Shown here: positions 18,396-19,624 of the stretch, one piece after another
How positions within the stretch are numbered: position 1 is the first letter of the stretch
Layout: each line of letters starts with the position of its first letter
DNA from: Bacteroidales bacterium
Lineage (GTDB): Bacteria > Bacteroidota > Bacteroidia > Bacteroidales > UBA932
Assembly (NCBI GenBank): GCA_017455065.1
Contig: JAFTBU010000055.1
Location: 1-37,741, forward strand
DNA: 37,741 nt
Reading direction: 5' to 3'
Notes under the pieces: generated by a model
Told to the model about the DNA's origin: nothing
Database searches by the model: none
What the model saw: only the letters and a program-made list of their open reading frames with translations
Made by a program: the position numbers and the translations under genes

Positions 18396-18604
18396 GGTTT
18401 TTGGTGGTTTTGTTAGTGGTTATCTGTAAGTGGTTATTATGGAAATGCTCTGTGGTTGCTAAATACCTGTGATTGCTGAAATTCACGGAGTTTTCTGTAA
18501 ATATAGCGATAATTGGAAAGATTTGAAACTACTGAGCGTACGACTGGCGTTTTAAAAAGGCTGTGGCAGCGAGAGCTGTTTTTGAAACTACCTGACCAGA
18601 CGAT
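18396..18604. other. Leader of the small secreted gene and flank of the repeat element
   Basis: Read on the minus strand, 18398-18460 contains repeated AACCAC-type units (CCACTTAC, CCACTAAC, ACCACC) before the ATG at 18395. TATATTTA, one base off a -7 box, lies near 18493-18500 on the minus strand. TTTGAAACTAC occurs twice, near 18523 and 18582. No credible gene is seen. Confidence 0.4.
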
Positions 18605-18660
18605 AGCAACGGGCGGGCGAGGAGGACCTTTCCCCAGAGTCCACCGCAGCCCGCCCGTAA

Positions 18661-18736
18661 CCGCCGCAGGGCGTATATTGCGGCGGTGGTGCCCTGGCGT
18701 GACTCGCCGCCGCATCGCGCATACTGCGGTGGCGAG
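18661..18736. repeat. Two adjacent GC-rich palindromes in the left arm
   Basis: CCGCCGCA/TGCGGCGG (18661-18668 and 18679-18686) and CTCGCCGCCGCA/TGCGGTGGCGAG (18703-18714 and 18725-18736) form neighbouring hairpins with loops of about 10 nt. The first recurs inverted at 19422-19447. The shared GCCGC stem resembles REP-type palindromes. Confidence 0.7.
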
Positions 18737-18969
18737 GGCCCTCGATTATGTGTCCCGGCTGCAGCCTGCCGGCCCTTCAGGCCGGTACGGCCCTGCACCG
18801 CTTTCCCGAGAACGGCTCCGGCCGATTATGAAATTCGTCAGCCCGGCGACCATGCCTTCTACGGGCCTCCAGGGGGTATAGGGTTGCCTTCTGCCACCAT
18901 TTGGTCCTCGGAAGGCAAGCCGACCCCGCTTGCAGAGGCTTCTATTGGGTGTCCGGTGTGCCTCTGTAT

Positions 18970-19026
18970 TTCGGGTTGATCCTTGATGTTCGGGTTGATC
19001 CTTGATGTTCGGGTTGAACCTTAATG
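18970..19026. repeat. Three tandem 19-bp repeats
   Basis: TTCGGGTTGATCCTTGATG occurs at 18970-18988 and 18989-19007 and, with changes (TTCGGGTTGAACCTTAATG), at 19008-19026. The exact periodicity is iteron-like. The third copy runs into the left arm of the central stem-loop. Confidence 0.8.
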
Positions 19027-19171
19027 AACATCACGGGAGCAGGGGGATGCCACTGAGTGCACTCCAGGGGGTGGTAGCGCTCCAGGTCTGGGCTCGGAGC
19101 CGAGACCTGGAGCACGGTGGTGCCCTACAGTGCACTCTGGGAGGGGATCGTGCTCCCGCCCCGTTCATTAA
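19021..19171. repeat. Central nested stem-loop, about 150 bp
   Basis: Complementary blocks occur in mirror order: TTAATGAAC (19021) with GTTCATTAA (19163), GGGAGCA (19035) with TGCTCCC (19151), GAGTGCACT (19055) with AGTGCACTC (19129), and GCTCCAGGTCT (19079) with AGACCTGGAGC (19103), around CTCGGAGCCGAG. Such nesting is unlikely by chance and predicts one long interrupted hairpin in DNA or RNA. Confidence 0.75.
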
Positions 19172-19240
19172 CGGCCGTACCGGTATAGCAGCGCCCTTAA
19201 GGTGATGGCCGCGGCCGTACCGGCCTGAAAAGCTAGAAAA

Positions 19241-19300
19241 TCGATGGCGGAGCGTACCCCCAACAGACACGCGTATAAGCACGGTTAGCTCCGCCATCGA
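19241..19300. repeat. Perfect 13-bp stem-loop
   Basis: TCGATGGCGGAGC (19241-19253) and GCTCCGCCATCGA (19288-19300) are exact complements around a 34-nt loop; CCCCTTTTGG follows on the plus strand. A shorter hairpin CAGAGTG/CACTCTG lies at 19337-19366. Confidence 0.7.
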
Positions 19301-19624
19301 CCCCTTTTGGGCCTCGCTGGCTGGATTGACCTACTCCAGAGTGCCCTGGAAGGCCGATTCACTCTGCCATCGAATTTCACGTTCTGGCTTCAGGCGGGAA
19401 AGGAGTGGCTGATTGAGGCCGCCGCCGCAATATACGCCCTGCGGCGGCGGGGGGATGCGGCACCACCGCCGCGGGACGGCTAACCGCGGCGGTTACGGGC
19501 AGGCTGCGGCGAGCTATGTTTGAGTGCTCTCCTCGCCCGCCCGTTGCTCCCGGCTGCCGGGATGGTCCAGGCTCATGGAGCGTGGCAGCTCGGGACCGGG
19601 GAAAGCGATGTCAGCGCCAGGGGG

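What the first reader, a model, noticed from the sequence alone, without database searches (positions are those of the whole stretch)
18605..19548. Gene-free 944-bp element bounded by three nested inverted repeats
The arms 18605-18686 and 19422-19548 share 20-, 24- and 26-bp blocks in mirror order (two perfect, one with a single mismatch), and the interior is packed with hairpins and tandem repeats. No protein-like frame is seen. Candidates are a MITE-like non-autonomous element, a structured non-coding RNA, or a REP-palindrome mosaic used for nucleoid or mRNA control. It sits 76 bp past the comM stop.
Basis: seen in the sequence. Interest (0 to 1): 0.72.

Follow-up and report, generated by a model that had tools for sequence, protein, structure and literature searches.

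The report
Kilobase mosaic of REP-like DNA palindromes
This gene-free stretch is a repeated DNA element built of nested palindromes; its end-piece folds into a three-way junction whose paired letters changed together across related gut bacteria, and it tends to sit beside transposase genes of the kind that elsewhere spread such palindromes.

Summary
The element is one of 39 loci that I grouped from 148 blastn matches in its own genome. It is a mosaic of three palindromic families: X at both ends facing inwards (18602-18735 +, 19420-19548 -), Y twice and Z once inside. The X core (~90 nt) folds into a three-way junction found in 27 of 61 same-genus genomes. All 29 pairs show two-sided changes in 107 distinct copies; a structure-free alignment of 22 copies gives the same fold. 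Record names point to Candidatus Cryptobacteroides.

X lies beside divergent REP-associated tyrosine transposases (RAYTs): in 78 public loci chosen by an X motif alone, all 8 RAYT genes found are within 500 bp of it, none in the other ~471 kb. The own genome has three RAYTs; one has X ~120 bp away, one lies between two Z copies. The first one's predicted fold matches the solved RAYT 4er8 best. A relative keeps the gene pair with a ~160-bp gap and no element.

Best reading: a giant BIME/REPIN-like mosaic spread by RAYTs. Known kind, unusual REP type. Mobilisation is inferred.

The parts
18605..19548 (.). Whole composite: X - Y - Z - Y - inverted X
18602..18735 (+). Left X module; core three-way junction 18605-18693 plus a further hairpin
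   Evidence: profile hit (118.8 bits); R1 hit 90.9 bits
18829..18974 (.). First Y palindrome (called V in scripts; same family as Y)
   Evidence: matched on both strands
18970..19026 (+). Three 19-bp tandem repeats linking Y and Z
19019..19173 (.). Z palindrome; same family flanks the own-genome C28 RAYT on both sides
18776..18792 (.). Perfect 17-bp inverted-repeat arm, partner 19213-19229
19213..19229 (.). Partner arm of 18776-18792
19235..19381 (.). Second Y palindrome
   Evidence: matched on both strands
19420..19548 (-). Right X module, inverted; core 19459-19548
   Evidence: profile hit (112.6 bits); R1 hit 77.4 bits
17937..18395 (-). Small gene (152 aa) downstream; orthologue in G036 at 70% identity

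Best explanation
[not shown]
For: 148 matches/39 loci in the genome; three repeat families; 8 of 11 neighbouring X pairs head-to-head, 3 direct, 0 back-to-back; R1 hits in 27 of 61 same-genus genomes; 29 of 29 pairs with two-sided change, covariation 0.432 against 0.130 shuffled and at most 0.083 slid; same fold from plain MAFFT, 19 of 24 pairs; 8 of 8 RAYT ORFs within 500 bp of the X motif, a zone holding 72 of 543 kb; own RAYTs next to X (C53) and between Z copies (C28); REP_Tyr_transpos at E <= 1e-5 in 4 of 10 proteins; best solved-structure match 4er8, a RAYT with a REP hairpin, E = 2.9e-4; gap of ~160 bp without element in G036 against 1229 bp.
Against: X-neighbouring RAYTs are scattered over the RAYT tree (9 changes, shuffled mean 9.9), and many RAYTs have other palindrome arrays beside them. 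Presence of X and of RAYT are hardly linked per genome: 25 of 27 with X and 28 of 34 without X have RAYTs. No match reaches the NCBIfam cut-off of 80 bits, and PF01797 is above its cut-off in only 1 of 10. No RAYT was found beside Y. X and Z are far longer than described REPs, and own X has GTAA instead of GTAG. No movement was observed.
Confidence: 0.78

Rival explanations
1. X is a functional non-coding RNA (cis element or small RNA, or an RNA partner of the RAYT) and the mosaic is secondary.
For: G.T exceeds A.C on the X+ strand, 54 to 17 without two weak pairs, 64 to 37 with them; conserved unpaired letters.
Against: No Rfam family; flanking genes (+,+) 16 and (-,-) 22, so no strand bias; copies on both strands and inside larger palindromes. 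The G.T excess also fits single-stranded DNA.
Confidence: 0.09
2. A MITE-like element moved by another transposase, for instance an IS110-type one.
For: X lies inside IS110-type elements in G071 and, by my reading, G028; ends are inverted repeats.
Against: No IS110 (PF02371) match in the own genome, 10 of 61 genomes have one; X sits at different ends and strands in the two cases; no target duplication seen at the window copy.
Confidence: 0.06
3. The stems stay complementary only by mutation (template switching that perfects quasi-palindromes), without recognition by a protein.
For: 451 two-sided cells against few one-sided ones, as such a process would give (general knowledge, not tested).
Against: One three-way geometry kept over 27 genomes, conserved unpaired letters, adjacency to RAYTs.
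Confidence: 0.04
4. Assembly artefact at palindromes.
For: 26 of 39 loci are near contig ends.
Against: Window copy internal to its contig; gene order on both sides kept in G036; related X copies in genomes assembled separately.
Confidence: 0.01

Closest known systems
REP/RAYT systems (REPtrons; TnpA_REP)
   Same: Palindromic extragenic repeats beside a HUH tyrosine transposase; the own protein's predicted fold matches 4er8 best. Folded single-stranded REP, not the inverted REP, is the substrate (PMC8266576, passages read).
RAYT subclass 2.6 (group 5) of Bacteroidetes
   Same: Genes mostly in Bacteroidetes, flanked by 'atypical secondary structures' with copies elsewhere in the genome (PMC6006769, section 25 and passages read).
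   Different: Their structures are in a figure that I could not see. The Y motif given for 2.6 is YIH[QN]NP; the own protein reads YILRNP. Assignment to 2.6 not made.
REPINs
   Same: Inverted REP doublets with a spacer forming one long hairpin, with compensatory changes, near RAYTs (PMC3116915, abstract and passages read).
   Different: There 71 bp separate the two 16-mers of a GI doublet; here the X modules are 684 bp apart with other palindrome families between them.
BIMEs
   Same: Mosaics of REP and inverted REP in intergenic regions (PMC8266576, PMC2817692, passages read).
   Different: Much larger modules, three families, nested inverted repeats of about 1 kb.
Integron attC sites
   Same: Fold matters more than sequence on one strand (recalled).
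   Different: No cassette gene seen between the tandem X copies of L186; no integrase search was made.

Membership tests
REP/RAYT system | RAYT gene with HUH motif and catalytic tyrosine in the genome | tested here: met
   3 homologues in the own genome; HxH in 9 of 10 aligned proteins, tyrosine invariant (L105 lacks HxH); fold match 4er8. Curated cut-offs: NF047646 reached by 0 of 10, PF01797 by 1 of 10.
REP/RAYT system | RAYT gene flanked by its palindromes on both sides, in inverted orientation | tested here: inconclusive
   C28 RAYT lies between two Z copies, but these form 202-nt direct repeats (87%), and Z, a palindrome, matches on both strands. C53 has X on one side only.
REP/RAYT system | GTAG/GTGG at the foot of the hairpin | tested here: inconclusive
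   GTAG between P2 and P4 in 59 of 111 rows of A5, GTAA in 5; own X copies aligned read GTAA.
REP/RAYT system | Repeat of 20-50 nt | tested here: not met
REP/RAYT system | Many dispersed extragenic copies | tested here: met
   39 loci; 29 X cores in the own genome. In a crude ORF of 37 own copies fell inside an open frame of 110 aa or more, which I did not test for coding.
REP/RAYT system | RAYT binds and cuts the repeat as single-stranded DNA | not testable with these tools
   Needs purified enzyme.
BIME/REPIN | Repeat and inverted repeat joined by a linker | tested here: met
   8 of 11 X pairs head-to-head in own loci (partial hits counted), 0 back-to-back.
MITE | Terminal inverted repeats with target-site duplication | tested here: inconclusive
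   Inverted ends present; no duplication seen at the window copy, by eye only.
Known structured RNA (Rfam 15) | Score above a family's gathering threshold | tested here: not met
   Window: only 3 tRNAs; element region 5 weak matches, all below threshold; nine relative loci: only tRNAs above threshold.
Integron | attC-like sites between gene cassettes, with integrase | tested here: inconclusive
   No cassette seen in L186; integrase not searched.

The most novel reading that the evidence does not exclude
X is a new class of transposase recognition structure: a three-way-junction REP in which geometry and unpaired letters, not stem sequence, are read, and which is shared or swapped among divergent RAYT lineages of one genus while each RAYT also keeps palindromes of its own. 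Bolder and not excluded: X serves as an RNA partner of the RAYT beside it.
Probability: 0.4. Interest if true: 0.72.

Novelty: new variant of a known kind. Interest (0 to 1): 0.56.

Why it matters
REPs are among the commonest bacterial repeats, but how RAYTs read them has been worked out for a few short hairpins. Here over 100 natural copies show which letters are free (stems) and which are kept (internal loop, junction), so that recognition can be tested directly with swapped stems and changed loops. The case also shows REP-type systems building nested palindromes of about 1 kb, and gives a reason for many contig breaks in this assembly.

Tried and rejected
PF01797 in the own genome gave 0 matches, which at first seemed to exclude a RAYT; the protein is too divergent for that search and came up only by clustering ORFs near X. 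X as an IS110 bridge or seekRNA (names recalled) was considered after L095 and dropped: no IS110 match in the own genome, and X lies at different ends in two IS110-type elements. Integron-like cassettes were considered for the tandem X copies of SIG154 and dropped on reading L186. A 3'-UTR regulator was dropped for want of strand bias. X as the REP of one RAYT clade was not borne out. Y beside the C4 RAYT was not found; the palindrome there is single-copy in this genome. Z-profile matches also flank a RAYT in G063 (E from 2.7e-5), at E-values like those of G015, but the alignment looked poor, so I do not count it. Plasmids and viral contigs (exact pattern) gave nothing; the order search found only the own genome among 295, with strict filters and 14 candidates scored per genome. 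Not every motif locus has the full fold: of the 78 loci I gave 65, where 55 had a match at E <= 0.01; the other 23 (10 without a match and 13 not given before) were run, and several keep only the P2-P3 arm. The profile search of PDB sequences gave only weak matches (best 2xm3, E = 0.13). The VIA-align library was not available.

Full report
Observation. It is not unique: blastn in the own genome gives 148 matches, which I grouped into 39 loci (38 stretches fetched, plus the window). 26 of the 39 lie within 600 bp of a contig end, so the copy number is a lower bound.

Anatomy. Profile searches resolve three families: X (~135 bp) at both ends, facing inwards; Y (~146 bp palindrome) twice; Z (~154 bp palindrome) once. 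Y and Z match themselves on both strands. Other loci hold other combinations: an inverted interior in L011, Z without X in L035, Y without X in L043, and in 6 of 32 aligned X copies a common insertion of about 110 nt in a hairpin loop. Of 11 neighbouring X pairs in the own loci (gap under 1.5 kb, partial hits counted) 8 are head-to-head, 3 direct and 0 back-to-back.

The fold of X. Copies in relatives have other stem sequences but the same pairing. A covariance model from 8 copies finds 29 in the own genome and 63 in 26 of 60 other genomes of the genus. On 111 hits (107 distinct), from 100 loci that I chose out of those held, all 29 pairs show two-sided change, 96.0% of cells pair, and the covariation score is 0.432 against 0.130 for shuffles and at most 0.083 for slid versions. 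An earlier, overlapping set of 89 hits (77 distinct) gave 27 of 29 pairs. These alignments were fitted to the model; a plain MAFFT alignment of 22 copies, picked by me for diversity, gives the same three-way junction with 19 of 24 pairs changed on both sides. G.T outnumbers A.C on X+ by 54 to 17 without two weak pairs and 64 to 37 with them, which marks X+ as the folded strand, RNA or single-stranded DNA; the model's liking for G.U may inflate this. Internal-loop and junction letters are strongly conserved, but 65 of the 100 loci had been picked by an exact pattern in that loop; rows found by the model alone show it too, with exceptions such as L105 and L106.

Distribution. The exact pattern over one genome per species returned 78 loci. 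Their labels are Bacteroidales, Bacteroidia, Bacteroidaceae or Candidatus Cryptobacteroides, save one called Oscillospiraceae, which I take for a binning error (inference). Some of these records match genomes of the genus search in contig length and place (for instance L179 and G012), so the genus is probably Cryptobacteroides (inference). Not all are full X: 55 of 65 had a model match at E <= 0.01; the rest and 13 more were run, and several keep only the P2-P3 arm. In the order, 1 of 295 genomes, the own one, matched (coarse). Plasmids and viral contigs gave nothing.

The enzyme. PF01797 found nothing in the own genome. Clustering ORFs near X showed a recurring protein with an HxH motif, 18 proteins in 18 loci, some of them the same place fetched twice. 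NCBIfam REP_Tyr_transpos matches 4 of 10 at E = 1.2e-11 to 8.3e-6 and a fifth at 0.049, all below the curated cut-off; PF01797 is above its cut-off in 1 of 10. The alignment keeps HxH in 9 of 10 and an invariant tyrosine. The predicted structure of the own C53 protein (mean pLDDT 75, pTM 0.66) has as best solved match 4er8, a RAYT bound to a REP hairpin (E = 2.9e-4, TM 0.59 by target length), followed by IS200/IS605 transposases. The own genome has three such genes: C53 with X about 120 bp downstream; C28 between two Z copies within 202-nt repeats 87% alike; C4 with a palindrome found nowhere else in the genome. In G015 Z-like repeats also lie on both sides of a RAYT.

Is the adjacency more than chance? 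The 78 loci were chosen by the X motif alone. They hold 82 motif sites in about 543 kb and 8 RAYT ORFs; all 8 have an end within 500 bp of a site (zone of 72 kb), none lies in the other ~471 kb. Uniform placement would put about one of eight there. The model gives a match at E <= 0.001 at the motif of 6 of the 8; L168 is cut by the contig end and L163 has only the arm. The profile used to find RAYTs was built from X-neighbouring proteins, three of them (L180, L196, L202) from these loci and one more (L103) the same protein as in L189; but with the same profile most RAYTs of the genus search lie away from X. There, 7 of the 63 X copies outside the own genome are within 1 kb of a listed RAYT (my count; the RAYT list is cut off). 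Against a simple pairing: X-neighbouring RAYTs are scattered over the RAYT tree (9 changes, shuffled mean 9.9), RAYTs without X mostly show other palindrome arrays and some show both (15 loci read by eye), and 25 of 27 genomes with X against 28 of 34 without have RAYTs. X looks like a module shared by RAYT systems rather than the mark of one.

Empty site. In G036 comM, the small gene and the GH31-like gene are neighbours too. The gap between the first two is about 160 bp, keeps a similar stretch before the small gene, and is too short for the element; the own gap is 1229 bp. G036 has X copies elsewhere (8 hits). So the element was gained or grew in the own lineage, or was lost in G036. Only this one of 6 genomes with the small gene (own included) was compared.

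Gene context. Of 119 copies outside the 39 loci (two of them on own contig C6), 69 had a neighbour called on both sides: convergent 23, divergent 8, (+,+) 16, (-,-) 22; 24 of the 119 fell inside an open frame (crude longest-ORF calling). This fits repeats tolerated at gene ends better than a sense-strand regulator.

Mechanism. TnpA_REP acts on folded single-stranded REP, not on the inverted REP (PMC8266576, passages); REPINs, inverted REP doublets, are proposed as the mobile unit (PMC3116915, abstract and passages). By analogy I infer that X-bracketed units are read through their X+ folds and copied as single strands, with palindromes of other RAYTs nesting inside. None of these steps was observed.

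Novelty. Atypical secondary structures beside Bacteroidetes RAYTs are reported (PMC6006769, section 25 and passages). Three library searches (listings only, except the five papers of which I read parts) showed no report of a three-way-junction REP or of REPs in Cryptobacteroides; figures and supplements were not seen. Hence a new variant of a known kind.

Noticed in passing
L095 (G071:C24) 244-1726; L098 (G079:C110) 109-438; L135 (G028:C56): X lies inside IS110-type elements: in G071 downstream of the transposase and a 69-aa ORF of unknown family, near a right end shared by several contigs; in G028 upstream of the transposase on the other strand. G079 shows the same 69-aa ORF before X.
   Followed up: partly
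L009 ~2690, L042 ~1942, L044 ~2828 (own genome, near contig ends): Three X copies stop at the same place in the P3 loop and run into IS-end-like sequence (two alike, one different), as if an insertion sequence targets this loop.
   Followed up: no
L141, L155, L169, L177, L191, L193, L207, L216 (Ca. Cryptobacteroides avistercoris): Most copies seen keep only the P2-P3 arm with the internal loop, without the P4 hairpin; L151, L157, L172, L199 and L206 (other records) show arm-only forms too.
   Followed up: partly
L231, L235, L248, L254, L261 (RAYT loci of relatives): RAYT genes lie within arrays of other, species-specific palindromes on one or both sides, different from X, Y and Z.
   Followed up: no
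L186 5930-7651 (SIG154): Non-coding units of ~813 bp, each with X, stand three times in direct tandem after the gene upstream.
   Followed up: partly
L089 265-347, 7309-7392, about 661-755 (own contig C6): A divergent X subtype with a shorter P2, in at least two copies outside any X-Y-Z mosaic; not found by blastn with the window element.
   Followed up: partly
L101, L120, L148, L158: A zinc-ribbon transposase-like protein (family name recalled, not searched) recurs near X in several species; PD-(D/E)XK-like proteins recur in L116, L117, L121, L161.
   Followed up: no
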